A stretch of 64,000 bases of DNA from Owenia fusiformis (Eukaryota; Annelida; Polychaeta; Sabellida; Oweniidae). The stretch covers positions 23,393,915-23,457,914 of the forward strand of contig CAIIXF020000001.1 in the NCBI GenBank assembly GCA_903813345.2. The letters are read 5' to 3'. Position 1 is the stretch's first letter. Every line of letters begins with the position of its first letter. A program made the position numbers and the translations under genes. Below are positions 21,235 through 45,544 of the stretch, piece after piece. A model generated the notes under the pieces. The model had not been told where the DNA came from. It searched no databases and saw only the letters and a program-made list of their open reading frames with translations.

Positions 21235-24200
21235 ATGAAGACAACTCTGACTTTGACATGCGCAGTTTTGCTCTTCAGTATCTGCCAGGGAGGTGTTCGT
21301 CGCGAAGCTGCTGGTGAGTTTTACAATAGTTAAATAAAAGAGATCTGATTATTAGTCCCGAGCCCGACAAATGTTTTTCACAGATCGGGATATGATGAAT
21401 CGAAGATACACTGTCACGTAATTTTATAGGGCTCGCGGGATAGTCACGAAGTCAAACACCTGTATCTTCGATTCATCATATCCCGATCTGTGAAAAACAT
21501 TTGTCGGGCTCGGGACTAATAATCAGATCTAAATAAAAGTAGCGTGCTTTGAATACAACTTTAAAAATAATATAGATGTTAGAAATTGTGTCTTCTTGAA
21601 TCTAGAATATAGGAATTAAGGACAAATGTTTTTATCATCTTAATTTCCTCTATACACTTTATTGTACAATCTAATCTCTTGTCACATTATAAATTGACAT
21701 AGCAAATAATGTCCCAAATTAAAGTTTAGCTTGTTACAATATCTTGTGTTTGTAAATGGGTCTACCATGCTTTTACTGCTAGAGAATTTGTCTTAAGATT
21801 GCCTCCCATATTTTTCATAGGCCTCTAACTTGTTTTTCAGCAATATTTCTGTTAATTGCTTCATGTAGTTATTAAGTACTTTCCAGTCAAGTTTGGAGAT
21901 ATGTGTCAAATACTGTAGCAAATTCATATTCATTCATAGGCGTAGCCAGGAGGGGGTGCGAGGGTCCGATCGCACCCCCCCCCCATAGCAAATAAAATAG
22001 GTACATTAGATAGAAGAAGAAAAGAGCTTTAAAATGCTTTTTATTTGAAGTTTCTAGCCAATTTTGAAGGAAGTTGCATCAATTTTTGTAAAATTCAAAA
22101 CAAATCTTCAATTTTTGGGGTTTCTTATACCACGATTGCACCTCCCTGACTGAAAACGGATATTTTGGCGATCGCACCCCCCCCCCCTCACTGAAAGCTG
22201 GCTACGCCCCTGTCATTGGAGTTTTATAGTTTAATGCAGAAGTAAAAATGAAGATGCTTGATTTTGATTCTAACATTAATATTAAACCTTTGCCACGGGG
22301 CAGGCAAAGAAGATTATCAAAATTGTATTTTTAAAACATGTGAAAATTGTATTTTAAAAATAGATTATATGATTTAGGCTTTTGTTTTTGAACATTTTTA
22401 TTATTTTCAAAGCTGGATTTGAATCGTGTGAAAAGAAAATCATGCTAGAAGTTGAGAAGGGATGGGTGGCTCAATTTAAAAGTCAAGCCATGAATGATTT
22501 CTGTGGAATGAAACAGGTATGTAGACCATTAAATTGTTTTCATTTTCTACTGATTTATCTTATATCTGAATAGAGCTGAAGTTACATACTGTTTAACAAT
22601 GATTTAAAATCTACACTATACTCAGGCTTGATGAATTTTAAATGAAATCGTCAGTCATTCTGAACAACTCCAACACAACATAAAATAAAAATGGCTATAC
22701 AAGTGCCGATCAAAAAGTTTTTTACCGTTGGCTCTAGATTTTATAATAAGAGGAGTTGGCTGCTCAAACTTGAGCACGAGACAGAGCAGATAGTTTGCTT
22801 GAACTTGTATGAGTTTCATACAAATTGGGTTATTGGTAGTGATTGACTAGATTTCAAGAAGCTGCACATAGAATACTCTGTAAAGTTCTCCACTAAATGG
22901 AATATGCTATTATAACAGTAGCAGACATAGACTGGTGCATGTAACTTATAGATAAACTTACCGCCATTTCAAACTTTCCCAAAGTCGCCATTATGTACCT
23001 TAACCTCGTTGCAGCCTCGTTTTGGATAGATATGCTTGGCTAAACCGCGTCACCTCTGTCCATACTGGTTATCAGTACACAGATGATGACATGTTGTTAT
23101 AGTCTCCAACTTTTTGTGGGTGGTGTTTGGTGATCGGCGTTCGTAACAAATGGCAGGTGGTGGTGGCAATATTCATGTTAATTATGCCTTGTCTAGATGT
23201 TGGATCGTTATCATTTTTTAAAATATATGTTTCAATACTATAAGTTGCTTCGTTTTGACTTTCTTGTTTAATAACACCTTAATGAATTTACCATCTAAAT
23301 TGAAATTGATCCAGGCCGAAGTTAATGGTGGGAGCGATGCCCTCGCCTCTTGCGGTAATGATATTTCTGCAGACTTGATACAGAACGAGCTGATACACTG
23401 GGGAATTGTATTGAAAGAAAAGGAACAGGAATGTCCCGGTCTGAATGTGGATGAGAAAATCTTTAAATATCTGACACCAAGTAAGACTTTATTTTCAACT
23501 ACACCTACCCTGCGCGCAGAAGCTAGTTATAAACTGCAGAAGAAGCTCTCTTTTAAGAAGTGAAGCCAAACGAATGCAAAGGGTAAATTAAAACTACACC
23601 TTAACTAATTCAATTTGAGGCTGCGAGTTTGATTCAACTGTATTCCATCAACCACTTGTCTACTAGGTCAAACCACGGATATACGAACTTTAAATTTATA
23701 ATATTACTACGTCCGGTGGATTCATTCTATGAATTTGTGAGATAACTATAATCACAGGCTGGTATCGAAATATTTGTCCGCTGTGACGGAGCATGCTATT
23801 TTTCATAAAAACACTAAGAATACTTCACGATTTATTTTTTAACTCATATATTTCGTTATACCATGCAAAATTACTTACTCCATGCAATGGATATATCATT
23901 TGCGGGTAACTTTCACTTCTGTTTGAAGTCCAATTACGCTGGGAAGAAAAGCTATTGAAAATGGCGCCGGAGTATCATACTTCAAAATGTACCATTTCTT
24001 GTTTAACTTTCTAATAGCACGATATAGTGACACGATAATATTTACACATGGTTTCAGCATAACTATGAAGGTATAAATGAGATGTTGATGTATTTGGTCT
24101 TTTTAATTCTTTTATAAAAAATAATGTTTGATTTTTTTGTCCGCTGTGACGGAGCAGTTGCAAATGTGAACTTTGAAAATGCTCCGTCACAGCGGACAAA

Positions 24201-25677
24201 AAATATTAATACTATTTTTTATTAAAAAAATTAAAAAGACCCAATGCATTAATATCTCATTAATACATTCAGAGTTATGCTTAAAACATATGTTAATATT
24301 ATCGTGTCACTATATCATGCCATTAAAAAGTTAAAAAAGAAATGCTACATTTTAGAGTTTGATACTCTGGCGTCGTTTTCAATAGATTTTACTCCTAGCG
24401 TTATTGGACTTCAAACAGAAGTGAAGGTTACACGCAAATGATATATCCATTGCATGGAGTAAGTAATTATCTTTGATATAACGAAACATATGAGTTAAAA
24501 AATAAATCGTGAAGCATTCTTAGTGTTTTTATGAAAAATAGCATGCTCCGTCACAGCGGACAAATCTTTCGATACCAGCCTGTGATAATGTAAATAACAT
24601 ACGAAAAGGCTTAGACGTCGTTCAAAAGAGAACCTCCAGTATTAAATTAAGAGGGACACCGGTTGTGCCTTGGTCACATTTGCTCCGATTTTCACTACGG
24701 CGCCCGGCCGATTGAGTATTATGTTCAAAATTGAATACGATATTGAACAAAACACTCAATCGGCCGGGCGCCGGCCGATGGATCGGAGCAAATGTGACCA
24801 ATGCATTAGAGCAAGAGGTAAATATTCTATATTCATTTCAGATAGTGTTAATAAGGTGAATGAAATGATGCAGGCGATGGATGGTAAGAAAACTCACTTA
24901 TGACAATGCTTATCATAAATAAAGGTTCTAAAATAGATATTGTGAACGGTGGAGTTGTTGAACATATAGATGGGGCATGTGTCTCAATCACTTGTGATTT
25001 TGAAGAGAATTATATTAAATGACTTTCGCTTGATAATTTAATGTACAAAAGTAGATCCCCGAGATGCGCTAATATATTTTTTATATTATCTGGTAGTAAT
25101 GATTGTAATACAAATAATAATGATGATTATATTGTTTCGGGTTGTAGCTCTCTCTCCAGCTGAACGTACTTGCAGCAGGGAAGCTGAGAAAAAACTAGAG
25201 ATTGCAGCAAATAGTCGTGTAGCTGAGATCCTCGCTGATAGTAACTCAGAAGTCACGGATATATGTGATGAATTTATCAACCAGTGGGAAATCAGTATGA
25301 CATTTTTATTTCGAAAACAATGAACTTATTGCGAGCATAATTCAAAACCCAAATGTAACTTCTCAATCAACAAATAATTGATTTCTGAATCACTTATAAT
25401 TTCAGTTCGAAGAAATGGGTTGATTTAGGAAGTGTATTGAATTAAAGTTTTATATTCCGATACGAAATTATTCATCTCGACATTTCTCAAAAAATATTCT
25501 CCAAAATATTTTTATATTTCAGACACGATCCCAGAACTAGAAAAAGCCTGCAACGCACCTTCAGCGGCTATGCGTACGATTGCGCTAGAATTGCCGAAAA
25601 CTATCAAGGCCATATTTAGTCCATTGAAGGGCACCACCGCATGTGACGCAAATGCCACAAGGGCAAAGATACAATAA
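21235..25677 (+). CDS. secreted eight-cysteine helical protein, copy A, six exons, 230 aa
   Basis: Exons are 21235-21313, 22413-22516, 23315-23480, 24842-24883, 25148-25294 and 25523-25677. All have GT donors and AG acceptors and join in phase to 693 bases. Residues 1-19 form a signal peptide (core AVLLFSIC), and an Arg-Arg at 22-23 could be a processing site. The mature part has cysteines at about 32, 57, 74, 101, 139, 170, 189 and 220: exactly two in each of exons 2, 3, 5 and 6, spaced 24 to 30 residues. Between them the sequence is rich in Ala, Glu, Lys and Leu, suggesting one disulfide-closed helical module per exon. Exon 4 is a short cysteine-free linker (SVNKVNEMMQA). Copy B matches in exon sizes for exons 3-6 and in intron phase. 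I do not recognise the family. It is probably extracellular; function, ligand and tissue are unknown. Confidence 0.75.
21341..21530. mobile_element. 190-base MITE with perfect 70-base inverted arms and 9-base target duplication
   Basis: Arms 21341-21410 and 21461-21530 are exact reverse complements starting AGATCTGATTATTAGTCCCG. AAATAAAAG flanks both sides (21332-21340 and 21531-21539). The 9-base duplication fits Mutator-like or Merlin-like transposases. It lies in intron 1 of copy A. Intact arms imply recent insertion or ongoing mobilisation. Confidence 0.85.
21937..22211. mobile_element. hAT-like nonautonomous element in intron 1 of copy A
   Basis: Inverted ends ATAGGCGTAGCCAGG and CTGGCTACGCCCCTG, with C-runs of 9 to 10 just inside each end and CGATCGCACC / GCGATCGCACC motifs on both sides. 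It sits between the functional first exon and the decayed alternative first exon. Confidence 0.65.
22248..22303 (+). pseudogene. decayed alternative first exon of copy A
   Basis: This 56-base segment aligns with exon 1 of copy B (27693-27750): the same ATGAAGATGCT start and the same GGGGCAG end, but two bases shorter. It is therefore out of frame and no longer encodes a hydrophobic signal peptide. The donor has become GC (GCAAAG where B has GTAAAG). It lies 109 bases before exon 2, near the distance expected for the ancestral intron 1. Copy A must now use the unrelated upstream first exon at 21235. Confidence 0.7.
23506..23585 (-). mobile_element. 80-base MITE, copy 1 of 3
   Basis: Begins TACCCTGCGCGCAG and ends CAAAGGGTA on the plus strand. 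Its reverse complement matches the segments at 48234-48311 and 46564-46653 over nearly their whole length. It lies in intron 3 of copy A. Confidence 0.65.
23751..24586. mobile_element. 836-base nested palindromic element in intron 3 of copy A
   Basis: Two arms of about 400 bases (23751-24165 and 24180-24586) are imperfect inverted repeats ending ATCACAGGCTGG and CCAGCCTGTGAT. The motif TTTGTCCGCTGTGACGGAGC occurs four times: near 23773 and 24136 in one orientation and near 24181 and 24545 in the other, so each arm is itself bracketed by the motif. No coding capacity. No convincing target duplication was found. Confidence 0.75.
24670..24801. mobile_element. 132-base GC-rich fold-back MITE
   Basis: Ends TTGGTCACATTTGCTCCGAT and ATCGGAGCAAATGTGACCAA are exact reverse complements, and inner GGCGCCCGGCCGATTGAGT blocks also pair. 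It ends about 40 bases before exon 4 of copy A and is far more GC-rich than the intron. Confidence 0.8.
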
Positions 25678-25723
25678 TTGCAAGCGAACTGGACACAGTC
25701 GATTAATACTGTATGAATAGCGA

Positions 25724-25729
25724 AATAAA
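25724..25729 (+). terminator. polyadenylation signal of copy A
   Basis: AATAAA 47 bases after the stop. Further A-rich AATAAA-like motifs follow. No equivalent is visible after copy B. Confidence 0.65.
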
Positions 25730-27607: not shown

Positions 27608-27608
27608 T

Positions 27609-27618
27609 TATATATATA
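27609..27618 (+). promoter_or_regulatory. TATA box candidate of copy B
   Basis: TATATATATA run 75 bases before the ATG of copy B exon 1, almost the same distance as in copy A. Confidence 0.4.
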
Positions 27619-27853
27619 CGATTTCAATTCGATTTCAATACGTGTCCAACAGTTTCACATTCATTGGAGGAGATTATTGTCCAGGTGCGAAAATGAAGAT
27701 GCTCGCTATTTTGACTTTAACATTGGTATTACACCTTTGTTATGGGGCAGGTAAAGAACACTATTTTAAAACTGTATAATTATCATAAAATATACGTCAG
27801 ATTAAAAATTAGATTGTATAATTAAAAGTTTCATTTACCAATATGTATTATTA

Positions 27854-28070: not shown

Positions 28071-28640
28071 TCTTTCTTTCCGCGTTTTCTCAGCAACTAG
28101 AGGGACTTTCTGAAATCTGCTTACATAGTTAGAAAGGTAATGAGACCTAGTTTCCCGGAAATTAGGTCAAATTTTTATCTAGGTCAAAGGTCAAAATCTA
28201 GGTCAAATTATCATTTTGTGAATTATCTTTGTCATTTTTCAATATTTTTCAAATTTTTTTTTTAACGTGTAGCCAAGAAAAAGACGATTCGACAGTGAGT
28301 TATCAGTTTTTTGATTACTTCTACCGATTTTGAGATATTGCGTCCGGAAAGTAGGTCAAACGAAAAAGTTCTCCAAATTCAACGTATGAGTCATGAAATA
28401 AGTGTAAAATTTCCTCAGGAATCCAAATCTGCAAACCAAATTTTGATCCGACTTCCGGTTCGGAAGCTATAGCGTTTTGAAATCGCTAAATTTGGTGCCC
28501 ATGTTAAGCCAATGGGAAAAAAGACTTTTTCGAAGTGTAAAATACAAGATATAGACTGAGCACAGCTTAACATAATGAATGCCTATAAAAGAAGGGGACC
28601 TCAAAAGCTACCTAGCTTCAAAATTTGGACACCAAAATGC

Positions 28641-31600
28641 CTAGGTCAAAATCTAGGTCAAATTCATAGTTTTTCCTTATTTTTACGATTCTGACACTAC
28701 ACTTTAATAATTTGCTTCAAAATTTTGTATACAGGTAGCAAAGAGTGTACTAATAGTGTTAGCCTTTTGCCGTCAGAAAGTATTTTGACCCACTTTTGAG
28801 ATATGGTGTCCGAAAAGTAGGTCAAAATAAAAATTTCTCATAATTTAACATATGAGCTATGAGTTAAGGGTAGAATTTTCTCAGGAATCCGAATCTGCAA
28901 ACCAAATTTCAATCCGACTTTTCGTTGGGAAGTTATGGCGTTTTGAAAGCTCAAAAATCGCTAATTTTGGTGCCCCATGTTATGTCAATGAGAAAAAAGA
29001 TTTTTTTGAAGTGTAAAATACCAGATAAGGACTGAGTACAGCTTAAGATTCTGAAAGTCTATAAAAGAAGGGGACCTGGAAGGCTATCTAGCTTTAAAAT
29101 TTGGACACCAAAATCCCTAGGTCAAAATCTAGGTCAAATACATAGTTTTTCCTTATTTTTGCGATTCTGGCACTACACTTTTAGGATTTGCTTCAAAATT
29201 TTGTATACAGGTAGCAAAGAGTGGGCTAATAGTGTTAGCCTTTTGCCGTCAGAGAGTATTTTGACCCACTTTTGAGATATGGTGTCCGAAAAGTAGGTCA
29301 AAATAAAAAATTCTCCAAATTTTACATATGAGTTATGAATTAAGGGTAGAATTTTCTCAGGAGTCCGAATCTTTAAACCAAATTTCAATCTAACTTCTGG
29401 TTAGATAGTTATAGCGGTTTGAAGTCTCGAAAAGTCGATATGATGATATCCCCATGTTAAGCCAATGGAGTCGAAGATAAAAAATTGAGAGTTGTCTAAA
29501 TGTCTAAATTCTAGCTGACTCGATCAGCTTATTCTGGATGACTCAGCTTACAAGTATTCTGGATGACTCAGCTTAAAAAAAAGTATTAAATCTGGAGTCT
29601 TAAATTGAACTTGTTCAATTTACATGTCTAGTTATTATTCATTCTTTCTTTCTTTCTTTCTTTCCGAACACTTTTTCTCAGCAACTAGAAGAACTTACTT
29701 TAACCTACTTACATGGCTAACATAGCCCATCAACCTAGTTTCTGGGAAATTAGGTCAAATTTTCATCTAGGTCAAAGGTCAAGAACTAGGTCAAATTTAG
29801 GTAAAATTAACATTCTGTCAATTATCTTCGTTGTTACTTGTGGTAACTCCTTCATCTTTTTTTCAACATGTAGCTTAGAAAAAAACAAATCGAGAGTGTG
29901 CCATCCGTTTTTTGATAACTCTTAGCGATTTTGAGATATGGCGTCCGGAAAGTAGGTCAAACTAAAAAAGTTCTCCAAATTTAGCATATGAGCTATGAAA
30001 TAAGGGTAGAATTTTCTCAGGAATCCGAATCTGCAAACCAAATTTCGATCCGACCTCCCGTTCGGAAGAAATGGCGATTTGAAAGCTCAAAAATCGCTAA
30101 ATTTGGTGCCCCATGTTAAGTCAATGGGAAAAAAGACTTTTTTTAATTGTAAAATATGAGATATAGACAGAGTGCAGCTTAACATAATGAATTCCTATAA
30201 AGGAAGGGTACCCAAAAGCTACCTAGCTTCAAAATTTGGACACCAAAATCCCAAGGTCAAAATCTAGGTCAAATTGATAGTTTTTCCTAATTTTTACGAT
30301 TCTGACACTACACTTAAATGATTTGCTTCTAAATTTTGTATACAGGTAGCAAAGAGTGTGCTAATAATGTTAGCCTTTTGCCGTCAGAAAGTATTTTGAC
30401 CCACTTTTGAGATATGGTGTCCGAAATGTAGGTCAAAATAAAAAGTTCTCCAAATTTAACATATGAGCTATGAAATAAGGGTAGAATTTTCTCAGGAATC
30501 CGAATCTGCAAACCAAATTTTGATTCGACTTCCAGGTCGGAAGTTATGGCATTTTGAAAGCTCAGAAATTGCTAAATTTGGCCCCATGTTATGTCAATAG
30601 GGAAAAATATAATTTTGAAGTGTAAAATACCAGGTATAGACTGAGTACAGCTCAACATAATGAAAGTCTATAAAAGAAGGGGACCTCAAAGGCTACCTAG
30701 TTTCAAAATGTGGACACCAAAATGCCAAGGTCAAAATCTAGGTCAAATTCATAGCTTTTCCTTATTTTTGCGATTCTGACATTACACTTTAATAATTTGC
30801 TTCAAAATTTTGTATACATGTAACAAAGAGTGTGCTAATAGTGTTAGCCTTTTGCCGTCAGAAAGTATTTTGACCCACTTTTGAGATATGGTGTCCGAAA
30901 AGTAGGTCAAAATAAAAAGTTCTCCAAATTTAATTTATGAGTTATGAATTAAGGGTAGAATTTTCTAAGGAATCCAAATCTGCAAATAAACTTTCAATCC
31001 GACTCCCAGTTTAGATTCTATGCCATTTTAAAATTCACATTTGTTTAAAATTCACATTTGCCAGTATCCACAATGCAGATCCATCAAATATACTTTCAAC
31101 AATTCCTACTTACTTACTTACCTACATACCTACTCGGCTACCTACTTAGCTACCTACTAAGCTACCTACTCAGCTACTTACTCAGCTACCTACTTAGCTA
31201 CCTACTCAGCTACTTACTCAATTACTTAATCATCTACATACTCAGCGTCCTACTCAGCTCTTTACTCAAGTAAATCAATCTGGAGTCTTAAATTGAACTT
31301 TGTTCAATTTACCAATCTAGTTATTATTATTTTTCTTTCCGAACCAGTTTTCTCAGCAACTAGAAGGACTTACTTAAATCTGCTAACACAGTCAACTAGG
31401 TAATGAGACCTAGTTTCTGGGAAATTAGGTCAAATGTTTATCTAGGTCAAACGTCAAAATCTAGGTCAAATCGTTAGTTTTCACTATTTTACAAGTTTTC
31501 TCAGTCGTCCTTCGGTATTTTGGCTCCGGTTTTTTTTCATCTTGTAGCTTAGATAAAAAGCTAATTCCGAAAGGCAAATCGTTTTTTGATTACTCTTACC

Positions 31601-34600
31601 GATTTTGAGAAATGACGTCCGAAAAGTAGGTCAGAACATAAAAAGTCCTCCAAATTCAACGTGTGAATTATCAAATAGGTGTAGAATGATCTCAGGAATC
31701 CAAATCTGCAAACAAAATTTCAATCCGACTTCCGGTTCGGAAGTTACAGCGTTTTGAAATCTCAAAATCGCTAAATTTGGCGCCCCATGTTAAGTCAATG
31801 GGGAAAAAGACTTCTTCGAAGTGTTAAATACGAGATATAGACTGAGTACAGCTTAACATAATGAAAGCCTATTAAAGAAGAGGACCTCGAAGGCTATCTA
31901 GCTTTAAAATTTGGACAGCAAAATGCCTAGGTCAAAATCTAGGTCAAATTTATAGTATTTTCTTACTTTTGCGATTCTGACACTACACTTTAATAATTTG
32001 CTTCAAAATTTTGCACACAGGTAGCAGAGAGTGTGCTAATAGTGTTAGCCTTTTGCCGTCAAAAAGTATTTTGACCCACTTTTGAGATATGGTGTCCGAA
32101 AAGTAGGTAAAATTAAATGTTCTCAAAATTTAACATATGAGCTATGAATTAAGGGTAGAATTTTCCCAGGAATCCGAATCTGCAAACTAAATTTCAATCC
32201 GACTTTCGGTTCGGAAGTTATGGCGTTTTGAAAGCTCAAAAATCGCTAAATTTGGTGCCCCATGTTATGTCAATGAGAAAAAAGATTTTTTTGAAGTGTA
32301 AAATACCAGATATAAACTGAGTACAGCTTAACATTCTGAAAGCCTATAAAAGAAGGGGACCTCGAAGGCTATCTAGCTTTAAAATTTGGACACCAAAATG
32401 CCTAGGTCAAAATCTAGGTCAAATTCATAGTTTTTCCTTATTTTTGCGATTCTGGCACTACACTTTTAGGATTTGCTTCAAAATTTTGTATACAGGTAGG
32501 AAAGAGTGTGCTAATAGTGAGAGCCTTTTGCCGTCAGAAAGTATTTTGACCCACTTTTGAGATATGGTGTCCGTAAAGTAGGTCAAAATAAAAATTTCTC
32601 ATAATTTAACTTATGAGTTATGAATTAAGGGTAGAATTTTCTCAGGAATCCGAATCTGCAAACCAAATTTCAATTTGACTTTTCGTTGGGAAGTTATGGC
32701 GTTCTGAAAGCTCAAAAATCGCTAATTTTGGTGCTCCATGTAATGTCAATGAGAAAAAAGATTTTTTTGAAGTGTAAAATACCAGATAAAGACTGAGTAC
32801 AGCTTAAGATTCTGAAAGTCTATAAAGAAGGGGACCTCGAAGGCTATCTAGCTTTAAAATTTGGACACCAAAATCCCTAGGTCAAAATCTAGGTCAAATA
32901 CATAGTTTTTCCTTATTTTTGCGATTCTGGCACTACACTTTTAGGATTTGCTTCAAAATTTTGTATACAGGTAGCAAAGAGTGGGCTAATAGTGTTAGCC
33001 TTTTGCCGTCAGAGAGTATTTTGACCCCCTTTTGAGATATGGTGTCCGAAAAGTAGGTCAAAATAAAAAATTCTCCAAATTTTACATATGAGTTAGGAAT
33101 TAAGAGTAGAATTTTCTCAGGAATCCGAATCTGCAAACCAAATTTCGATCCGACTTCCGGTTCCAAAGTTATGGCATGTCCGAAAAGTAGGTCAAAATAA
33201 AAATTCGCCAAATTTAACGTATGAGTTATGAATGAGGGGTAGAATTTTGTCAGGAATCCGAATCTTTAAATCAAATTTCGATCCGACTTCCGGTTTGAAA
33301 GTTATGGCGTTTTGAAATTTCGAGAAAAATCGATCTGATGTTATCCTGATAGAAAGTCAAAGAAAAAAGATTTTTTTGAAGTGTAAAATACGAGATATAG
33401 ATTGAGTACAGCTTAAGATAATGAATTCCTATAAAAGAAGGGGACCTCAAAAGCTACCTAGTTTCAATATTTGGACACCAAAATGCCTAGGTCAAAATCG
33501 AGGTCAAATTCATAGTTTTTCCTTATTTTTGCGATTCTGGCACTACACTTTTAGGATTTGCTTCAAAATTTTGTATACAGGTAGCAAAGAGTGTGCTAAT
33601 AGTGTTAGCCTTTTGCCGTCAGAGAGTATTTTGACCCACTTTTGAGATATGGTGTCCGTAAAGTAGGTCAAAATAAAATGAGTTATGAATTAAGGGTAGA
33701 ATTTTCTCAGGAATCCGAATCTATAAACTGATTTTCGATCAAACTTCTGGTTAGATAGTTATAGCGGTTTGAAGTCTCGAAAAGTCGATATGATGATATC
33801 CCCATGTCATGCATATGGAGTCAAAGATAACATTCTTAAGAGTTGTCAAAATGTCTATATTCTAGCTGACTCAGCTTATAGTGAATGACTCAGCTTACAA
33901 GTAATTGGATGACTCAGCTTACAAGTAATTGGATGACTCAGCTTAAAACAAGTCTTAAATCTGGAGTCTTAAATTGAACTTGTTCAATTTACATGTCTAG
34001 TTATTATTATTATTCTTTCTTTGCCAGTTTTCTCAGCAACTAGAAGGACTTACTAAAATCTGCTAACATAGTCAGCTGGGTAATGAGACCTAGTTTCTGG
34101 GAAATTAGGTCAAATGTTTATCTAGGTCAAAGGTCAAGAACTAGGTCAAATCGTGTGTTTTCACTATTTTACAAGTTTTCTCAGTCGTCCTTCGATATTT
34201 TTGCTCCGGGTTTTTTTCATCATGTTCCTTAGAAAAAAAGCTAATTCCGTAAGGCAAATCGTTTTTTGATTACTCTTACCGATTTTGAGATATGGCGTCC
34301 AAAAAGTAGGTCAGAACATAAAAAGTTCTCCAAAGTCAACGTGTGAGTTATCAAATAAGTGTAAAATCATCTCAGGAATCCGAATCTGCAAACAAAATTT
34401 CGATCCGACTTCCGGTTCGGAAGTTATTGCGTTTTGAAATCTCAAAAATCGCTAAATTTGGTGCCTATGTTAAGTCAATGGGAAAAAAGACTTTTTCGAA
34501 GTGTAAAATACAAGATGTAGACTGAGAACAGCTTAACATAATGAATGCTTATAAAACAAGGGGACCTCAAAAGCTACATAGCTTCAAAATTTGGACACCA

Positions 34601-35700
34601 AAATGCCTAGGTCAAAATCTAGGTCAAATTCATAGTTTTTCCTTATTTTTACGATTCTGACACTACACTTTAATAATTTGCTTCAAAATTTTGTATACAG
34701 GTAGCAAAGAGTGTGCTCATAGTGTTAGCCTTTTGCCGTCAGAAAGTATTTTTACCCACTTTTGAGATATGGTGTCCGTAAAGTAGGTCAAAATAAAAAT
34801 TTCTCATAAATTAACTTATGAGTTAGGAATTAAGGGTAGAATTTTCTCAGGAATCCGAATCTGCAAACCAAATTTTGATCTGACTACTGGTTCGGAAGTT
34901 ATGGCGTGTCCAAAAAGTAGGTCAAAATAAAAAAAATCCAAATTTAACGTATGAGTTATGAATTAGGGGTAGAATTTTTTCAGGAATCCGAATCTGCAAA
35001 CTAAATTTCGATCCGACTTCCGGTTCGAAAGTTATGGCATTTTGAAAGCTCAAAAATCGCTAAAATTGGTGCCCCACGTTATGGCAATGGGAAAAAAGAT
35101 TTTTTTTGAAGTGTAAATTACGAGATATAGACTAAGTACAGCTTCAAATAATGAAAGCCTATAAAAGAAACGGACCTCAAAAGCTATCTAGCTTCAAAAT
35201 TTGGACACCAAAATGCCTAGGTCAAAATCTAGGTAAAATTTATAGTTTTAACTTATTTTTTAGATTCTGACGCTACACTCTAATTATTTGCTTCAAAATT
35301 TTGTATACAGGTAGCAAAGAGTGAGTTAATAGTGTTAGCCTTTTGCCGTCAGAAAGTATTTTGACCAACTTTTGAGATATGGTGTCCGAAAAGTAGGTCA
35401 AAATAAAAAGTTCTCAAAATTTAAAGTATGAGTAATGAATTAAGGGTAGAATTTCCTCAGGAATCCGAATCTTTAATCCAAATTTCAATCCAACTTCTGG
35501 TTAGATAGTTATATCGGTTTGAAGTCTCGAAAAGTCGATCTGATGATATCTCCATGTTAAGCCAATGGAGTCGAAGATAACATTCTTAAGAGTCGTCTAA
35601 ATGTCTATATTCTAGCTGACTCAGCTTATTCTGGATGACTCAGCTTACAAGTTTTCTGGATGACTCAGCTTTAAAATCTGGAGTCTTAAATTGAACCTGT
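28641..35700 (+). repeat. 475-base tandem monomers inside the array, some 610 bases
   Basis: The landmark CTAGGTCAAAATCTAGGTCA (or a close variant) recurs at 28641, 29117, 30252, 30726, 31927, 32402, 32877, 33487, 34607 and 35217. Within a unit the spacing is 474-476, except for two 610-base steps in which about 135 bases around the AAGTAGGTCAAAATAAAAA block are duplicated. Monomer number per unit is two, two, four and two, so units grow by internal monomer gain. Confidence 0.85.
31085..31265. repeat. CTACCTACTCAG-type minisatellite in array unit 2
   Basis: Alternating CTTAC, CTACCTACTTAG and CTACTTACTCAG steps of 4 to 12 bases fill this stretch and give a spurious open frame of Leu/Ser/Tyr repeats. 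It replaces the hairpin-proximal part seen in the other units. Confidence 0.75.
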
Positions 35701-35717: not shown

Positions 35718-38700
35718 TTATTATTATTATTTATTGCTCTCACTATTTACAACAGTGGCACATGAGGAGTATCAGTGCGGCAGAATGACATATCATTAAA
35801 ATACAACATATTACAGCATTAAAAAACATTAAAATATTTGTTAAAATACATTACAATACTGATAATAGACTTTTATCTTCATTGTCATTACAGAAAGTGA
35901 AAGTGAATAAAATCAATGTTTGAATATCTCTTTATTGATATCAACTAAAAATGTTTTTGATAGCTTATCAAAAGTAGAACCTAGGTCCTGTCCCCAATAT
36001 ATAGCTACATCATCCCCCAAAATCCAACGTGTTTTCTCAGAAATGGAAAGTTGTAAAAAACTATTGACAATTGAATCCGGGCATTCTTTATTAAACTTTT
36101 CAAAAAACATATTTCGTTGTGTTGTTGTGGATGGGCAAGTAAATAGGCGGTGTTCAAGTGTATCTTTTTCTGAGAGGCAAGTACTACAGAACCCATCTGA
36201 CAGTCCCCTCCTTTCAAGATCAGTATTCAAGCCCAGACATTTAGCGCGAGCTCTGAATTTGATATGCTGGCTGTAAAAATCCATGCCTGTTTTCAGATAA
36301 TTTTCTAAAAAAGTATGGTTCTTAACAGTCTTGAATAGTGACAATGATGATTTATCGCATATTGCCTCATTAAAGCATCTTACCCATTGTTCATTTGAAA
36401 TATTTAAATAAGATGTGTACCAGTTAGTATCGTCACGGTATATAACATCATCAAGTCCAACCTCAGTTAGGATTGAGTGGACATTTTCCATAAAAGGCCA
36501 TGGTGCCTTGTGACCAAGCTTAAACTCATGTAGCAAATAATTGAAAATATCTTTATGGAGTCCATTCTTCAAGGAACTTTTTAAATAAATAAAATAATCA
36601 ATCTGGCGTTTATGTATAATATCACAGATTGGTCTCCACCCAAGGTCACCAAGGAGGGATTCTCTTGCAGGGTTGCATTTGAGTTGCATTAAGGCCTTAG
36701 CCATTTTGTATTGCATAGTGCTAAGATATTTTTCGGTGGTCTTATTCAGTAACATTACTCCACAACCATGGAGTATTGCAGGCAAAAACATTCCGTTATA
36801 CATTGTATTGCCAAAATCAATTCTTTTCATATTACAATGCTTTGTCAGTGTAGAGCAAATCATATTTTGAATTCTTCTTGACTTGGGTTTTAAAGTGTCT
36901 TTAATGTGGTAAGTATCCTTCAAAGAACGGTCAAAATAGATACCCAAATACTTGTAGACTTTTACTTCTGTCAATTCATGTTCCCCTAATATCCATTTTT
37001 TCTCATAATTGATTCTTTGCCCTATAACCATTACTTTCGATTTTTTCGAATTAAATTTAAAACCCCATTCAACTGCAAAAATGTCAGTTACTTTTAAAAG
37101 TTTATTCAATTGCTGCTCAGACTCGCCCATAAGCACTATATCATCGGCGAAAAATAAAGATGGAATTTTTTTACCTTTAAAGTCAAAGCAAATGTTTTCC
37201 TTTTCAAGTGAGCTTAATAAGTCGGTCATTATAATAGAAAATAATGTTGGGGAAAGGCAGCAACCTTGTTTTAAACCTGTTTCTGAGTCATACCATGGAG
37301 TTGAAAAATTTCCAAAAACCACCTTATTAGATATACCTTCATATGTTTTCCTCAGGAGTCTCCAAAATTTACCCTGTATCCCTTTTTCCCATAATTTCGT
37401 AAATAAAATATCCCGATCAATCACGTCGAAAGCCTTGGAAATATCAATAAAAGCCAAAAAAGATTTTTTGTTCTTTGCCTTTCTTATGCCACATAGGCCC
37501 TTTAAGGCAAATATATGGTTTTCCAATCTCAAGTTGGATCTGAAGGCACCTTGTGTATCCCCAAAGATATTTCTTTTTTCGCAAAATGACCTTAATTTAC
37601 TTTCCATGATAGAAGTGAAAACTTTATAAACATTAGAATTAACTGTGAGGCCCCTGAAGTTATCTAAATTCTCAATATCATTATTTTTGTGCAGTGGTTT
37701 TAATAGGCCTTCTTTCCATTCTTTAGGAATCAGCTCCAATAGTCTTACCTTGTTAAAAAGGTCAAATAATGGTTTCATTAGCGCAACTCCACCATTTTTC
37801 ATAAATTCATTCGGTATCTGATCTGTTCCACAAGATTTCCCATTTTTCAAAGTTTTAATACATGTGGTTATGTCATCAAATTCAAAAGCGCAAAATAAAA
37901 GTGAGTCGGTTGAAAAATTTGACATTGACTTTAACTCATCAATTCTATCCTCAAGGGAAGGTGTGACATGTTTAGGGTTCTTGTTAACTTTACCAACACT
38001 ACCCCAGTACTTAATGAGGGCATCTGAAATTTGCTTGGGGTCTGTTAATATTGTGTCAGTGTCGTCGGGGTTTTTAATCTGTATGGGATACCCGGCATTA
38101 GCATTAAACATGGTCAGCGTTTTCCAATAAGTTTTAGAGCTTTTAGAGCGTTTATATGCATTTCTCGTGATCAACTTAATGTGGTTCTTAACATGAGCTT
38201 CCTTTATCTTAATTTGGACTTGTTGCTTACGGTATAAATAGAGTTCCCACATTTCATGAAGAATATCTGGGTCACATGACCCTAATCTACTCCAATAACG
38301 GTAAAAGCGCGATGCCTGTTTTCTACTTCTGATTAAACTTTTAATATCATCATTCCATAAAACATGGCGATTAATCTGAAATTGCTTAACTCCGATAGAT
38401 TTCATGGCAGCGTTCTTAACATTAGACTTCCACATATTCCAAGCTTCATCTATGTCATTAATGTTTGATATATCCCACTCCATAAATTCAGAGTAAATGT
38501 TACCTCTAAAAAGGTCCCAATCAGTATTATCAGATATGTTCCACCTAACTGAAGGTGACTCATTCTTAAAGTGAGGCTTGAGTTTGTGGGGTTTAATATT
38601 AGACAACTTCATCACAATGATCAAAAAAGAATGATCGCTACCTACGGAAGCGTGTTCATGGTTTTGGTCAATCAGCATACTCTGTAAAATATTATCACAA

Positions 38701-39330
38701 AGTTCATTGACAAAAATATAATCAATAGTGGAGGACTGACCATTACGGGCCCAAGTTGTTTCCCCCTTACATTTAACAGAAAGATTTAGATTTGTCATTG
38801 TGGTAACTTCAGAAAACAGCTCAATCAAATCACCATTTGGACTATTAGATGACTTTCTGAATTGAGGCACTTTACCATTGAAATCTCCCATTAATATATT
38901 ATGCATATTTCCATTTTCAAGTTGGGTAACATTACTTATGAGCTCATTGGTCAGTGCTTCACTAATATCTTTGTCTTTACCATCGACTGGGAAATAAGTT
39001 ACACCATAGTTAAAAATACAGTTATAATGTTTACACTGGATCCATAACCTTTCAAAATCATCATCCATTGAATCTAATAGATTATCGTTTAAGATAGTAA
39101 TCTCCTTTTTAATGAAGAACCCAATACCACCGCCACCTTTACCAGCTCTGTTCTTGGAAATGAATTTATATTGATCATTACATATAGTTAAAGTATTGCA
39201 CTCATTAAAGAATGTTTCTACTACCCCTAAGATATCATACTTATTAGACTTTAAGAGTTCATTCAATTCATATTGTTTTGAAATTCCAAGATGCTGGACA
39301 TTATTGAATGCTACTATGAGGTATAATAAC
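35718..39330 (-). mobile_element. 5'-truncated non-LTR retrotransposon (LINE)
   Basis: The 3' end is at low coordinates, where an AAT-type microsatellite tail (minus-strand sense) abuts the end of the Helentron-like array. The single long frame encodes endonuclease and reverse transcriptase. The 5' edge is placed at about 39330, because sequence from TTGAACATT onward matches the DNA just before exon 2 in copy A. ORF1, the 5' UTR and only the first few endonuclease residues are missing. No target duplication could be defined. Confidence 0.85.
35913..39266 (-). CDS. LINE ORF2: APE endonuclease and reverse transcriptase
   Basis: Drives target-primed reverse transcription of LINE RNA. The reported frame is 1117 codons and is open for 24 more upstream (to 39338) without an ATG, so it is a truncated ORF2 rather than one with its own start. 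The endonuclease spans roughly residues 1-225: a VVETF block near 15, GDFNGKV, TTWARNGQSSTIDYIFVN, and SDHSFLI near 210. The reverse transcriptase spans about 470-790: SCGTDQIPNEF, FRGLTV, AFIDISKAFD, GLKQGCCLSP and FADDIVLMG near 705. A C-terminal Cys-Cys-His-Cys knuckle (CSTCLSEKDTLEHRLFTC) lies near 1027. There is no RNase H domain. No stop or frameshift interrupts it, so the insertion is young. Clade is uncertain; it looks like the I/Nimb/Ingi branch. Confidence 0.93.
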   Translation of the reverse strand: MNELLKSNKYDILGVVETFFNECNTLTICNDQYKFISKNRAGKGGGGIGFFIKKEITILNDNLLDSMDDDFERLWIQCKHYNCIFNYGVTYFPVDGKDKDISEALTNELISNVTQLENGNMHNILMGDFNGKVPQFRKSSNSPNGDLIELFSEVTTMTNLNLSVKCKGETTWARNGQSSTIDYIFVNELCDNILQSMLIDQNHEHASVGSDHSFLIIVMKLSNIKPHKLKPHFKNESPSVRWNISDNTDWDLFRGNIYSEFMEWDISNINDIDEAWNMWKSNVKNAAMKSIGVKQFQINRHVLWNDDIKSLIRSRKQASRFYRYWSRLGSCDPDILHEMWELYLYRKQQVQIKIKEAHVKNHIKLITRNAYKRSKSSKTYWKTLTMFNANAGYPIQIKNPDDTDTILTDPKQISDALIKYWGSVGKVNKNPKHVTPSLEDRIDELKSMSNFSTDSLLFCAFEFDDITTCIKTLKNGKSCGTDQIPNEFMKNGGVALMKPLFDLFNKVRLLELIPKEWKEGLLKPLHKNNDIENLDNFRGLTVNSNVYKVFTSIMESKLRSFCEKRNIFGDTQGAFRSNLRLENHIFALKGLCGIRKAKNKKSFLAFIDISKAFDVIDRDILFTKLWEKGIQGKFWRLLRKTYEGISNKVVFGNFSTPWYDSETGLKQGCCLSPTLFSIIMTDLLSSLEKENICFDFKGKKIPSLFFADDIVLMGESEQQLNKLLKVTDIFAVEWGFKFNSKKSKVMVIGQRINYEKKWILGEHELTEVKVYKYLGIYFDRSLKDTYHIKDTLKPKSRRIQNMICSTLTKHCNMKRIDFGNTMYNGMFLPAILHGCGVMLLNKTTEKYLSTMQYKMAKALMQLKCNPARESLLGDLGWRPICDIIHKRQIDYFIYLKSSLKNGLHKDIFNYLLHEFKLGHKAPWPFMENVHSILTEVGLDDVIYRDDTNWYTSYLNISNEQWVRCFNEAICDKSSLSLFKTVKNHTFLENYLKTGMDFYSQHIKFRARAKCLGLNTDLERRGLSDGFCSTCLSEKDTLEHRLFTCPSTTTQRNMFFEKFNKECPDSIVNSFLQLSISEKTRWILGDDVAIYWGQDLGSTFDKLSKTFLVDINKEIFKH

Positions 39331-39502
39331 CTTGAACATTAATTTTGTGGCAGATTTTGAATCGTGTGAAAAGAAAGTCATAATGGAAATCGAAAAAAAC
39401 GTGGTTGGCTCGATTTAAAAGTGAAGTCATTGGTGACTTCTGTGCAACGAAACAGGTATGTAGATCATCAAATTCATTTCATTTTCTTCCGAATTATCTC
39501 TA

Positions 39503-40290: not shown

Positions 40291-40778
40291 TAACACCCCA
40301 GTCACATTTGTCGCACGGCGGCCGTACGTCGACCGCAGATCAATTAAATCAGTGGATTTCTGCGACGAGCGTAGGAAAACTACGCTCGCCTTACGGCCTC
40401 CGTACGGCGTATCCAGTTTTTTACAGGCCGCAGGGTCGCCGTAGAAATTATAACTCGGAGTCATAATATTTGTTCATTTCTGAGAAATCAACTGGCTCAA
40501 CAAGATTGAATCATTATTTGTCAATGTTTCATGATCACTTTTCATTTGATATTACATCCTAGCATTATGAATAACATTTATAAATTGTCCCGATGTAGTT
40601 AAAATGAAAGAAAAGTATTATTTATCAACAGAAATTTAGAATTCACCGTGCGGCTGCCGTGGGAAATGTGACTGCAAAAGTATGAAAGCGCAGAAATTCT
40701 ACGGCGAGCGTAGAAAAGCTACTGGCCGCAGAAATGATAGACCGCACGGCGGCCGTGGGAAATGTGACTAGGGTGTTA
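40291..40778. mobile_element. 488-base MITE, copy 1 of 2 (TAACACCC ends)
   Basis: Inverted ends TAACACCCCAGTCACATTT and AAATGTGACTAGGGTGTTA, with GC-rich CGGCGGCCG blocks inside both ends and an AT-rich middle. The copy at 46828-47323 is closely similar throughout and in the same orientation. The ends fit a TA target duplication. It lies in intron 2 of copy B. Confidence 0.8.
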
Positions 40779-41344
40779 GATATTATTGTGTGTGTCAAAC
40801 AAACAATAAACATGTTTCCTTGGATATTTGTATTAAATTGTAAAAATAAAAATGTAAATAGAGTGAACGTTATCGTTTGAAATTATTAGCCGCAAATTAT
40901 TCTGAACGACCCCTATGTCAAAAGCGATAATTGAAGAAATGGGCAAGATACGTTCATTCAATTTTACACATACAGTTCTTCTCCGATGCTCTCACTATAG
41001 GACAAAGTTTGTAGCTTCATTTGTAATATGGTTTTTCCAGAAGAGGGTGTCTAATAATAATGAATTCTTCAATACATCTGATTTGGAGGATACGTTTATA
41101 TAAGACTCCATTAATCATTCCAAGAGTACCCCTTTTACTATGGCATGGCCTACTTTATAACATCATACATTATAAATAATGTTGAAAAGCAAAATATTTA
41201 TTCATTTTGACTCTTTTATAATATACAAATGTAAGGCATTTTAATGTAATATATTCCTTTCGCCTTGTTTAATTATATTTGTTAAGTCTTTCAATTAGTT
41301 TAATTTTGAAAGTGAATGGACCGGGTCCTATTTTCACAGGGTCG

Positions 41345-42080
41345 GTACCAAATTAAGCGTTACAGGTCAAAAAGATTTTTTTCAACTTGCTTCAAATTGA
41401 CCAATTTTTTTCAAATCATCTACAAATCATCAGAAGTTCATGTCTGACTTTAGATTTGAGATTCGACCTTCATTGACCTTCTCAAGGTCAAAAAGGGTCA
41501 AAAAGGTATTTTTCAACTTGCTTCAAATTGACCAATTCTTTTTTCAAACTCATCTAGAAGTTCTCAAAAGTTAAATTCTGACTATAGATTTGACCTTGAA
41601 TGACATTCTAAAGGTCCAAAAATATTTGACCTTCTCAAGGTCAAAAAGGAGTTTTTTCAACTTGCTTCAAATTGACCAATTCTTTTTTGAAAATCATCAA
41701 CAAGTTCTCAGAAGATTCAAATCTGACTTTAGACTTCAGATTTCACCATCAATGACCTTGTCAGGGCCAGAAAAGGTCCAAATATTGTGAGCAACTAGGT
41801 GGTGACATTTTGTCATGTTATTGCCTTGTTTTCGTCTCCCACCCTCTGAATTTTCGGGGCCGCCCCAGGTGTTGGTTTAGCATGGAAATTATTTATGTTT
41901 GGGCAGGGGGGTGCAATCATTTTCATTGGAATCGATATAAAAGTATTCTGGCACTTACAATGACCAAGACGTGCAAGCAATATTTATCATTGGGGTAAAT
42001 GTTGTATGGTTATGTGTCAGATTGGAAATAAAAAGAAAGCATAGCATGTTGAATAGAAATGTACGTAAAGGTTACATTCT
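41345..42080. repeat. repeat array with ~140-base monomers ending in a hairpin, unit 1
   Basis: Imperfect monomers around TTTTCAACTTGCTTCAAATT recur at about 41385, 41510 and 41655. The unit ends with GAGCAACTAGGTGGTGACA and the palindrome TGACATTTTGTCA. A separate copy of the end occurs at 63630-63672. The layout (short tandem repeats, then hairpin, near the end) parallels the array at 28-35.7 kb, so a second Helentron-like family is possible. Confidence 0.6.
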
Positions 42081-42704
42081 TCTTTTTTCAAACTCATCTA
42101 GAAGTTCTCAAAAGTTAAATTCTGACTATAGATTTGACCTTGAATGACATTCTAAAGGTCCAAAAATATTTGACCTTCTCAAGGTCAAAAAGGAGTTTTT
42201 TCAACTTGCTTCAAATTGACCAATTCTTTTTTGAAAAACATCAACAAGTTCTCAGAAGATTCAAATCTGACTTTAGACTTCAGATTTCACCATCAATGAC
42301 CTTGTCAGGGCCAGAAAAGATCTTTTTCAACTTGCTTCAAATTGACCAATTTTTATCTACAAGTTCTCAGAAATTCAACTCTGACTTGAGTTTGAACTAA
42401 TAATATTGTGAGCAACTAGGTGGTGACATTTTGTCATGTTATTGCCTTGTTTTCGTCTCCCACCCTCTGAATTTTCGGGGTCGCCCCAGGTGTTGGTTTA
42501 GCATGGAAATTATTTATGTTTGGGCAGGGGGGTGCAATCATTTTCATTGGAATCGATATAAAAGTATTCTGACACTTACAATGACCAAGACGTGCAAGCA
42601 ATATTTATCATTGGGGTAAATGTTGTATGGTTATGTGTCAGATTGGAAATAAAAAGAAAGCATAGCATGTTGAATAGAAATGTACGTAAAGGTTACATAC
42701 ATCG
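42081..42704. repeat. tandem duplicate of the preceding repeat, unit 2
   Basis: Starts TCTTTTTTCAAACTCATCTA as at 41538 and is nearly identical to 41538-42080, except for an extra ~80-base monomer near 42320-42400. The near identity points to a recent tandem duplication, or to an assembly duplication. Confidence 0.8.
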
Positions 42705-42751
42705 CTCTTCCCACAAAGTTATAACATGATCATATGTGAAACTGAGAGTGA

Positions 42752-43283
42752 AATATATTGTTTCTTGGTTTGGCAATGACTCATTCGTTGCTGTAATTTA
42801 AATATAAACATAAAAATACGAATACAACTAACTTTTGATCGTACGTTTATATTTCACATAATTTTAAAGTAATTTTGTATCCTCCAACACATGCTTAATA
42901 AGGTTTTACAAAGACAATTCAAATAATTCAAAAATTAAATAATGACGATCTAAACAGTTTTATTAAGTACTTTCATTTCTCAAAATAATAATCTAAAAAA
43001 ATTTTTTCCAAAGATATAATATATTGTTTCTTGGTTTTGCAATGACTCATTCGTTGCTGTAATTTAAATATAAACATAAAAATACGCATACAACTAACTT
43101 TTGATCGTACGTTTATATTTCACATAATTTTAAAGTAATTTTGTATCCTCCAACATACGCTTAATAAGGTTTTACAAAGTCAGTTCAAATAATTCAAAAA
43201 TTAAATAACGACGATCTAAACAGTTTTATTAAGTACTTTCATTTCTCAAAATAATAATCTAAAAATATTTTTTCCCAAATATG
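42752..43283. repeat. 266-base tandem duplication
   Basis: Units 42752-43017 and 43018-43283 differ at only a few positions. Both contain TTTTGTATCCTCCAACA, which also appears inverted at about 43296 and 43455. In intron 2 of copy B. Confidence 0.85.
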
Positions 43284-45544
43284 ATATTTTAATGTTTGGA
43301 GGATACAAAATATTGGACAGCCTAACTTGAATTCACGACACTCAAGCATATATCTCCATTGTCTGCAATCGAAGATATGTCATCAAAATGTACCTTCTGG
43401 CATATCTTTCACCAAAATAATGCATCAATAGTGTATATAAATATGGCCTATGTGTTGGAGGATACAAATATTTGACAAGTCGTATACATATAGTAAAACA
43501 CACTTAATTATGTGACTAAGACATATATCAAACATCCCGCTTACAAGAGTTGGTAGCACATACATTTTATTAACATGCTCAAAAATATCAGTGCAATCGA
43601 TACATTTTAATTAGGTTAAGAAATCCGAGTTTATATTTGCCGAAAACATAAAATATTTCTTAATTGTCTAAAAATCCATCATTAAAGTGATCTTTTTTAA
43701 AAAGATAAGGAATATTCCAAACACGTACCTCGTGGTTATTGCTTAAAGTCTGGTCAACAAAAAATACATTGCATGTCCAGGAAATCAACATATGTCGCAG
43801 TCTCTAGTACAACGTCAACAGATTTCTAAAACATCAATTATCGTAAATTGTCCCTCATATTCTATCGATAAGGGGTAAACACCTAAATGAATTTATCATC
43901 ACAATCTAATTCAGGCCGAAGTTAATGGTTGGAGTGCTGCCCTTGCCTCTTGCGGTGATGACACGTCTGCAGACATGATACAATTACAGCTGCTCTATTG
44001 GGGAATCAATATAAAAGAGAATGAACAGGAATGTCCCGGTCTGAATGTGGATGAGAAAATTTTAAAATATCTGACACCAAGTAAGTCTTTATTTCACACA
44101 GCTCCTCTGTTAAACATTATGATACAACCATACAACGTATCGACTACAGTAGGTCCAAGATATACGTGAGTTGATCCAAAAGGTCTGCACCGTTTAAACA
44201 TAAAAACACCGCGCGTCGTTCAAAAAGTACTCCCAACTTCTAAATTATGATGAGGGACATAGAATTAGGAGTTTACTGTCAGCCGGGACCCGTTTAACGT
44301 ATAAAGTATTTGATATTTATTTCAGGTAGTGTTAATAAGATGAATGAAATGAAGCAGGCGAGAGAAGGTAAGAAAAAAGCACTTATGAGCTTTTAAATAC
44401 TAGTGATGAGATAGTACTTTGTGAATGGATGGAGCTTCTCTATATCTAGTTTTCAAATACTTCTGATTTTGACTGCTGGAATTTTACTGTTGCATGATAT
44501 TTTTTACATATAATATATCAAAACTAGGTCCCTGATTTTTTAAAACTTTCCATGCATCGTTTCAATCACACGTCCGTATTTTTAAAGGTTATTCACAAGT
44601 GTGACTAATGGCGTCGTTCTCGTCCTAAAGAACCCTAAAATATTATATAACTTACACAATCAAAAAACGAGGACATAAATCTTCTTTTCTTAAAATATCA
44701 GATAAAATCTATATCTTATACCAGAGTTTCAGATTTGAGTTTCCATTTTTGGTAATAATGATTATGTTATATGTGCTATGTTATAGATCTCTCTCCAGCT
44801 GAACGTAGCTGTATGCTGAAAGCAGAGGACAACATTTTTATAGCGGCGCAAAATCGCACAACTGAGGTCCTTGCTGATAGTGGTTCAATAGTCACAGACG
44901 TGTGTGATGAATTCATCAACCAATGGCAAATCAGTATGAAAATTACAATTTAATATGTATCATATCCCACCCTGACAGAGACAGAGCTACAAAATCAATA
45001 TACAATTGGTCAAATTTTGTATCCTCAAATACCATTGTCCAATTACCGACGTACATAGTTAATAATAATATAACAAAAGCTGCGCCAGAACATGCCCTTT
45101 ACTCATATTATATTATTTTTGGGGGTTACAAATTATTTGAACTGCTGAAAAAAACTCAAACGGTATATGTGATTGACATAATATGACTTTTAGATAATTT
45201 ATTAACTAATACTTTTGTACCCTACTGTAAAAATGGATGTTGTGATTCGTAAGACATTGATTGTATCACTGGCTACAATTTTCTTTTACACACCAGAAAT
45301 ATGAGCATCTTATAGAAAACGTCTAGTGAATTATTTCTACGTAATGTTCTGTGTTCATAAATTGTTATTAGAATATTTTTATATTTCAGACACGATCCCA
45401 GAGCTTGAAAAAGCCTGCAATGAGCCGTCAGCTGCCTTGCGTACGATTGCGCTAGAATGGCCGGAATCTGTCAAGAACATATTTAGTCCACTGAAGGGCA
45501 CTGCAGCATGTGACGCAAGCACAGCCAGAGCAATGACACAATAA

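What the first reader, a model, noticed from the sequence alone, without database searches (positions are those of the whole stretch)
21235..45544. Unrecognised secreted protein family built from exon-sized two-cysteine modules
Copies A and B share six exons with identical phases. Exons 2, 3, 5 and 6 each encode a helix-rich segment with exactly two cysteines 24-30 residues apart, and exon 4 is a short linker. The signal peptide is on its own exon. This one-module-per-exon layout suggests an extracellular protein that grew by exon duplication, and I know no named family that fits.
Basis: partly seen in the sequence, partly recalled or inferred. Interest (0 to 1): 0.75.

Follow-up and report, generated by a model that had tools for sequence, protein, structure and literature searches.

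The report
Secreted gene with borrowed start exon
This is an unnamed family of small secreted proteins in an animal genome; one member appears to have acquired the promoter and secretion-signal exon of a distant relative, and the proteins look like cross-linked helices rather than a chain of separate modules.

Summary
Copy A is a real six-exon gene model encoding a 230-residue secreted-type protein with eight mature cysteines. No Pfam or PDB entry matches it. The same genome holds nine further relatives on contigs C8 and C12; all seven complete genes share intron phases 1,0,1,1,1.

The modular reading is not supported. No exon detectably resembles another, exons 2 and 3 have asymmetric phases, and exon 5 alone is predicted as one long helix. 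Two sub-lineages lost complementary pairs of cysteines across exons 5 and 6, which favours disulfides between exons.

Copy B is not a matching six-exon gene: exon 2 is frameshifted as assembled and exon 1 shows no similarity to A's.

The strongest result is that copy A looks chimeric. Its promoter, signal exon and intron-1 start are about 78% identical to five relatives, within or near the range those five show among themselves. Those five share introns further on, but none of that aligns to A. A and B share exons 2 to 6, and A keeps a dead copy of B's signal exon in intron 1.

Mature exons of four relatives change at about the neutral rate while frames stay open. A role in a fast-changing interaction is inferred; expression and target are unknown.

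The parts
21083..21339 (+). Captured block, first part: TATA promoter, 5' leader, signal exon and first bases of intron 1 of copy A
   Evidence: 75-79% DNA identity to a1-a4 and C12; a genome search with the C12 block finds 6 places: C12, a1-a4 and copy A
21235..21313 (+). Copy A exon 1: signal peptide MKTTLTLTCAVLLFSICQGGVRREAA, ends phase 1
   Evidence: 64-71 of 76-78 bases identical to exon 1 of a1-a4 and C12
21341..21530 (.). Foldback element (two perfect 70-base arms, 50-base centre) interrupting the captured intron start
   Evidence: pair I2; homology resumes at 21531
21531..21605 (+). Captured block, second part: intron-1 sequence
   Evidence: 76-81% identical to a3, a4 and C12
21934..22212 (.). 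High-copy interspersed repeat between captured block and relic; the junction lies in 21606-22244
   Evidence: 40 listed matches (itself included) from 3008 candidates
22245..22311 (+). Relic of a B-type signal exon inside A's intron 1: 2-base deletion against B exon 1, donor GT changed to GC
   Evidence: 70 of 88 aligned positions identical to B; the only other match to the B start in the genome at E<=1
22413..22516 (+). Copy A exon 2, phase 1 to 0, two Cys
23315..23480 (+). Copy A exon 3, phase 0 to 1, two Cys; 166 nt as in B, C12 and a1-a4
24842..24883 (+). Copy A exon 4, 42-nt linker, phase 1 to 1, no Cys
25148..25294 (+). Copy A exon 5, phase 1 to 1, two Cys; predicted as one helix on its own
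25523..25677 (+). Copy A exon 6 with stop codon; AATAAA at 25724
27693..27750 (+). Copy B exon 1 (signal peptide MKMLAILTLTLVLHLCYGA), ends phase 1
39354..39455 (+). Copy B exon 2, frameshifted by one base as assembled
43915..44080 (+). Copy B exon 3
44326..44367 (+). Copy B exon 4
44787..44933 (+). Copy B exon 5
45390..45544 (+). Copy B exon 6 with stop; exons 3-6 together give 169 residues, 120 identical to A

Best explanation
Copy A belongs to a multigene family of secreted, cysteine-bonded, probably helix-rich proteins. Shown by sequence: the conserved six-exon plan; family members on C1, C8 and C12; A's promoter, signal exon and intron-1 start close to the C8/C12 genes, its body shared with B; a dead B-type signal exon in A. 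Inferred: (1) A's older gene lost its own start after a copy of a C8/C12-type promoter plus signal exon landed upstream, putting a distant family member under the expression programme of those genes; (2) the mature protein is a set of helices tied by bonds between exon 5 and exon 6 (first Cys to first, second to last), and perhaps likewise between exons 2 and 3; (3) the proteins are secreted to bind a partner that keeps changing, such as a gamete, pathogen, prey or rival, because mature exons change at about the neutral rate while frames and most cysteines persist. Step 3 is the least certain (I give it about 0.3).
For: Family: genome searches with A, C12, b3 and c1 recover the same exon sets; 7 of 11 loci are complete and all 7 have phases 1,0,1,1,1. 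A/B body against six other members: hhalign score 40.0, maximum 21.5 in 60 shuffles. Chimera: the C12 block aligns to A at 78-81% and to a1-a4 at 79-83%; beyond it C12 shares 1347, 610, 1550 and 1228 of 2434 noncoding bases with a1-a4 and 0 of 2434 with A. A aligns with B from the relic through exons 2-6; relic. Noncoding distance of A's block to the five genes 0.21-0.24 (A-C12 95% 0.18-0.32), below A-B dS 0.52 (95% 0.35-0.75), so capture probably followed the A/B duplication. Disulfides: b1-b3 lack the second Cys of exon 5 and the last of exon 6; c1 lacks the first Cys of exon 5 and the first of exon 6. Rate: body dN/dS 1.04 pooled over C12, a2, a3, a4; signal exon 0.39; no stop and all Cys kept in 0.9-2.2% of neutral runs per gene.
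Against: No RNA or protein evidence; signal cleavage not predicted with a tool. Body dN/dS has 95% limits 0.73-1.51, so positive selection is not shown; C12-a1 exons 2-3 (0.049 over 0.126), b1-b3 (0.26-0.32) and A-B look constrained; no-stop alone survives in 12-15% of neutral runs per gene. Exon 6 of A/B is not detectably like exon 6 of the others (45 of 50 shuffles reach its score), exon 5 only marginally (5 of 50), so the bond pattern is carried to A by position and phase. The bond argument rests on two loss events; if each lineage lost two of four at random, the second would agree with the first one time in three. b and c1 are left with seven cysteines, C12, a2, a4 with nine, so some cysteine is unpaired or pairs between chains (sequences). 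c1 exon 4 is a weak model. B's intron-1 start gave 67 of 91 to a4 and 65 of 86 to C12 (AT-rich, no shuffle control for these pairs), so B's start may be an old cousin of the same start. b3 and c1 also share almost no introns with C12 (30 and 0 of 2434); A differs from them in having the block. Constraint on the promoter could make the capture look younger.
Confidence: 0.7

Rival explanations
1. One reading: a modular extracellular protein with one disulfide-closed helical hairpin per exon, grown by exon duplication.
For: Two cysteines in each of exons 2, 3, 5 and 6 of A at similar spacing; exon 5 predicted helical; first half against second half of the non-A members was reached by only 1 of 30 shuffles.
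Against: No comparison above 1.0% probability in 14; asymmetric phases of exons 2 and 3; complementary cysteine losses across exons 5 and 6; exon 5 one helix in isolation.
Confidence: 0.12
2. No capture: A descends as a unit from the ancestor of the C8/C12 genes, and promoter and signal exon were conserved while the body diverged.
For: Exon plan shared and body homologous; promoters can be conserved; B's intron-1 start may faintly resemble a4 and C12.
Against: The intron-1 part of the block is as conserved as the promoter (79-86 of 101-104), yet no later intron of A aligns to C12 while a1-a4 do. A carries a dead B-type signal exon. b3 and c1 bodies are closer to C12, a2, a3 (34-39%) than A is (21-29%), but their upstream DNA gives no comparable alignment and their exon 1 aligns at only about 67-73%, against 84-92% for A.
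Confidence: 0.1
3. The family is decaying: dN/dS near 1 reflects lost need, and B, a1 and the relic are steps in that decay.
For: dN/dS 1.04; B frameshifted; a1 broken in exons 4 and 6; lone signal exon at C8:19589553.
Against: Seven complete open genes with GT-AG introns; no stop plus all Cys kept in only 0.9-2.2% of neutral runs per gene; A-B and b1-b3 constrained.
Confidence: 0.1

Closest known systems
Trappin / WFDC / semen-coagulum (REST) genes of mammals
   Same: Signal peptide on its own conserved exon, fast-evolving secreted part; [quoted passage not shown] related passages of PMC3209443)
   Different: Three exons, one of them coding the secreted part, with WAP or Kunitz domains; here five mature exons and no such domain found
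Saposin B-type domains
   Same: Secreted, helical, disulfide-bonded (recalled); the C12 query touches a saposin-like repeat frame on C9 eight times at E 0.64-4.2 (named from its motif, recalled)
   Different: No CxxC opening or six-Cys unit (sequences); no Pfam saposin match in 7 scanned members; the losses in b and c1 do not fit the nested saposin pairing (recalled)
Cone-snail toxin and frog-skin peptide precursors (recalled)
   Same: Conserved signal region before a fast-changing mature part in a multigene family
   Different: Short peptides without a six-exon body; no sequence relation tested

Membership tests
Any Pfam family | Score above the curated cut-off | tested here: not met
   A and B exons 3-6; 7 members of alignment A1 (A, B exons 3-6, C12, a2, a3, a4, b3), best E 0.016, each listed family in one member only; c1, b1, b2, a1 not scanned
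Saposin B-type | Pfam saposin match and a six-Cys unit opening with CxxC | tested here: not met
   No saposin family; no CxxC opening in the sequences
Exon-shuffled modular extracellular protein | Modules on phase-symmetric exons that resemble one another | tested here: not met
   Exons 2 and 3 asymmetric; no exon similarity above 1.0% probability in 14 comparisons
Rapidly evolving secreted gene family (trappin/REST-like mode) | Mature exons changing faster than the neutral rate, signal exon constrained | tested here: inconclusive
   Body 1.04 (0.73-1.51), signal exon 0.39 without limits computed
Rapidly evolving secreted gene family (trappin/REST-like mode) | A gene made of one gene's 5' end on another body, with a relic left in intron 1 | tested here: met
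   (copy A only)
Four-helix cytokines | Up-up-down-down four-helix fold | not testable with these tools
   The fold tool takes proteins that the DNA gives letter for letter; a spliced protein was not sent, only exons 3 and 5

The most novel reading that the evidence does not exclude
An undescribed superfamily of secreted helical proteins in which promoter-plus-signal-exon cassettes pass between distant members, so that an old body gains a new expression site in one step and is re-deployed in an arms race.
Probability: 0.35. Interest if true: 0.7.

Novelty: new variant of a known kind. Interest (0 to 1): 0.5.

Why it matters
Capture of a promoter and signal exon is one way a secreted protein can switch tissue in a single step. 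Here the likely donor genes, the recipient's sister copy and the dead original exon all lie in one genome, so the order of events can be read and roughly dated; I judge such complete cases uncommon (inference). The family also has no match in Pfam or the PDB, and its cysteine losses give a disulfide map that can be tested directly.

Tried and rejected
One hairpin module per exon: not supported (cysteine losses). Saposin membership: not met, although the C12 query touches a saposin-like repeat frame on C9, 8 matches at E 0.64-4.2. The first profile comparison of A's exon 3 with alignment A1 was invalid because A1 contains A and B; it was repeated without them. The MAFFT alignment shifts exons 5 and 6, so identities were taken exon by exon. 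Dropped from the family count: the exon-5-like stretch at C8:17930867-17931010 (genome-wide E 4.41; better only inside a chosen stretch; no other exon of the family recognised there) and the lone b-type signal exon at C8:19589553-19589672 (no further exon recognised in the fetched neighbourhood). Parts of C8 between the fetched pieces of the a cluster (10640000-10642999, 10670000-10671999) were not read. Species: the COX1 search found nothing and the SSU rRNA search failed; a guess at one annelid led to two paper searches (listings only), was not tested and is not used. Paper searches for signal-exon or promoter capture and for secreted families (listings, plus passages of PMC3209443 and PMC2831891) showed no paper describing this family in what was listed; that is no proof of absence. 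The tblastn run had a wrong option and returned nothing; it was repeated. A 201-base match between DNA downstream of A and c1's intron was taken for a repeat and not followed.
Full report
What is there. Copy A is a six-exon gene model on the + strand (21235-25677) with GT-AG introns, phases 1,0,1,1,1 and one open frame of 230 residues. It starts with a hydrophobic, signal-like stretch on its own exon; cleavage was not predicted with a tool. Exons 2, 3, 5 and 6 hold two cysteines each. Comparison with copy B supports the exon model: A-B matches coincide with exons 2-6 plus short flanks at 72-85% identity, and the exon 3-6 frame has dN/dS 0.345, bootstrap 0.21-0.55, with dN at or above dS in 0 of 4000 resamplings.

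Copy B is not what the finding says. Its exon 1 (27693-27750) shows no detectable similarity to A's exon 1, and its exon 2 carries one extra base in an A-run that stops the frame. Its first intron is over 11 kb and holds repeat arrays and a LINE with an intact 1141-residue frame on the other strand. B is a pseudogene or has an assembly error there.

It is a family. Searches with copy A, the C12 gene, b3 and pieces of c1 found, besides A and B, nine loci: one on C12 (16651967-16655660), four on C8 near 10.63-10.68 Mb (a1-a4), three on C8 near 19.54-19.56 Mb (b1-b3) and one on C8 at 29113035-29126463 (c1). Of these 11 loci, 7 are complete (A, C12, a2, a3, a4, b3, c1) and all 7 have phases 1,0,1,1,1. 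Of the other four, B is frameshifted, a1 is broken in exons 4 and 6, and for b1 and b2 no exon 1 was found. The exon 4 of c1 is a weak in-frame candidate.

Is A's body the same family? Exons 2 and 3 of A/B match the other members better than all 50 shuffles; exon 5 is in register but marginal (5 of 50 reach it); exon 6 is not detectable (45 of 50). As a whole the A/B body scores 40.0 against a maximum of 21.5 in 60 shuffles. With identical phases, and exon 3 (166 nt) and exon 4 (42 nt) of the same length as in C12 and a2-a4, homology is the simplest reading, but for exon 6 it rests on position.

A looks chimeric. The C12 promoter-exon 1-intron 1 block is found in six places in the genome: C12, a1-a4 and copy A. 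A's block is 75-79% identical to these genes in its first part and 76-81% (a3, a4, C12) in its second. Upstream of the start codon A shares 106-112 of 135-138 aligned bases with the five genes (77-83%), and they share 109 of 138 to 136 of 143 among themselves (79-95%). In the intron start A shares 79-86 of 101-104 (78-84%), they share 88 of 117 to 101 of 107 (75-94%). Past the block the picture changes: C12 shares 610-1550 of 2434 noncoding bases with a1-a4 but 0 of 2434 with A, and no later exon of A aligns to C12 by DNA. b3 and c1, which lack the block, share 30 and 0. In A's intron 1, at 22245-22311, lies a dead copy of B's signal exon with a 2-base deletion and the donor GT changed to GC. 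So the A/B ancestor had the B-type start next to exon 2, and A most likely gained a C8/C12-type start upstream. The block's noncoding distance to the five genes is 0.21-0.24 (A-C12 95% 0.18-0.32), less than the A-B dS of 0.52 (0.35-0.75), which places the capture after the A/B duplication unless promoter constraint is the cause. One caution: B's own intron start gave 67 of 91 to a4 and 65 of 86 to C12; these are AT-rich and had no shuffle control, so a very old common origin of both start types is open. A foldback element later split the block, and a high-copy repeat lies between block and relic; whether repeats mediated the event is not known.

How the protein is built. In 14 profile comparisons none exceeded 1.0% probability; the closest to a signal was first half against second half in the non-A members, reached by 1 of 30 shuffles. 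Exons 2 and 3 are phase-asymmetric. In isolation exon 5 is predicted as one helix, residues 3-46, pLDDT 81 in the best model and 57-59 in the other four; exon 3 gave an unusable model, pLDDT 47. Among relatives, b1-b3 lack the second Cys of exon 5 and the last Cys of exon 6, while c1 lacks the first Cys of exon 5 and the first Cys of exon 6. Each lineage lost one cysteine from each exon, and the two sets of losses are complementary. That fits bonds first-to-first and second-to-last between exons 5 and 6, and neither bonds within exons nor a nested saposin-like pattern (recalled). It rests on two events and is suggestive only. Cysteine counts of the mature part are 8 in A and a3, 9 in C12, a2 and a4, 7 in b1-b3 and c1 (counted), so some cysteines are unpaired or link chains. 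Exons 2 and 3 keep all four cysteines in the seven complete genes, so their pairing is open.

How it evolves and what it may do. Among C12, a2, a3 and a4 the mature exons have pooled dN 0.234 and dS 0.226 (ratio 1.04, 95% 0.73-1.51; 181 codon columns) and the signal exon 0.39; exons 2, 3 and 5 are above 1 and exons 4 and 6 below, without a test per exon. In a simulation of 55 random substitutions per gene, no stop plus all cysteines kept occurred in 0.9-2.2% of 2000 runs per gene, no stop alone in 12-15%, so the genes are probably maintained. Against an arms race: C12-a1 (exons 2-3), b1-b3 and A-B look constrained. My best guess is a secreted helical protein that binds a changing partner; the function is inferred from the pattern alone.

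What it resembles. [quoted passage not shown] No Pfam or PDB relative was found for the family.

Verdict. The chimeric start of copy A is the part worth following.

Noticed in passing
window 35913-39338, - strand: LINE with an uninterrupted 1141-residue frame (endonuclease and reverse transcriptase matches, zf-RVT below cut-off) inside copy B's first intron.
   Followed up: partly
window 28328-35536: Array of diverged direct repeats, mostly at about 475-base spacing, in copy B's first intron.
   Followed up: no
window 23748-24589: Large inverted repeat, two 391-base arms 88% complementary with a 60-base centre, in copy A's intron 3.
   Followed up: no
window 62605-63465, + strand: 286-residue frame rich in tyrosine motifs of the form Y-x-x-V/I, with YxKVK-like repeats; no Pfam match. 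It looks like the tail of a signalling receptor (inference).
   Followed up: partly
window 15040-15795, + strand: 251-residue open frame with no Pfam match above cut-off.
   Followed up: partly
L026 736-6000 (G000:C9:34618400-34624400): One uninterrupted frame of at least 1755 residues with 18 saposin-like units (counted by a CxLCE motif) at an exact 89-residue spacing; saposin is named from the motif, recalled.
   Followed up: partly
G000:C8:19589553-19589672: Lone b-type signal exon (20 of 21 residues as in b3) with no further exon recognised in the fetched neighbourhood; a second movable start, or a distant exon 1 of b1.
   Followed up: partly
L014 (G000:C8:17930867-17931010, - strand): Stretch resembling A's exon 5 (37%, genome-wide E 4.41) with no other exon of the family recognised nearby.
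   Followed up: partly
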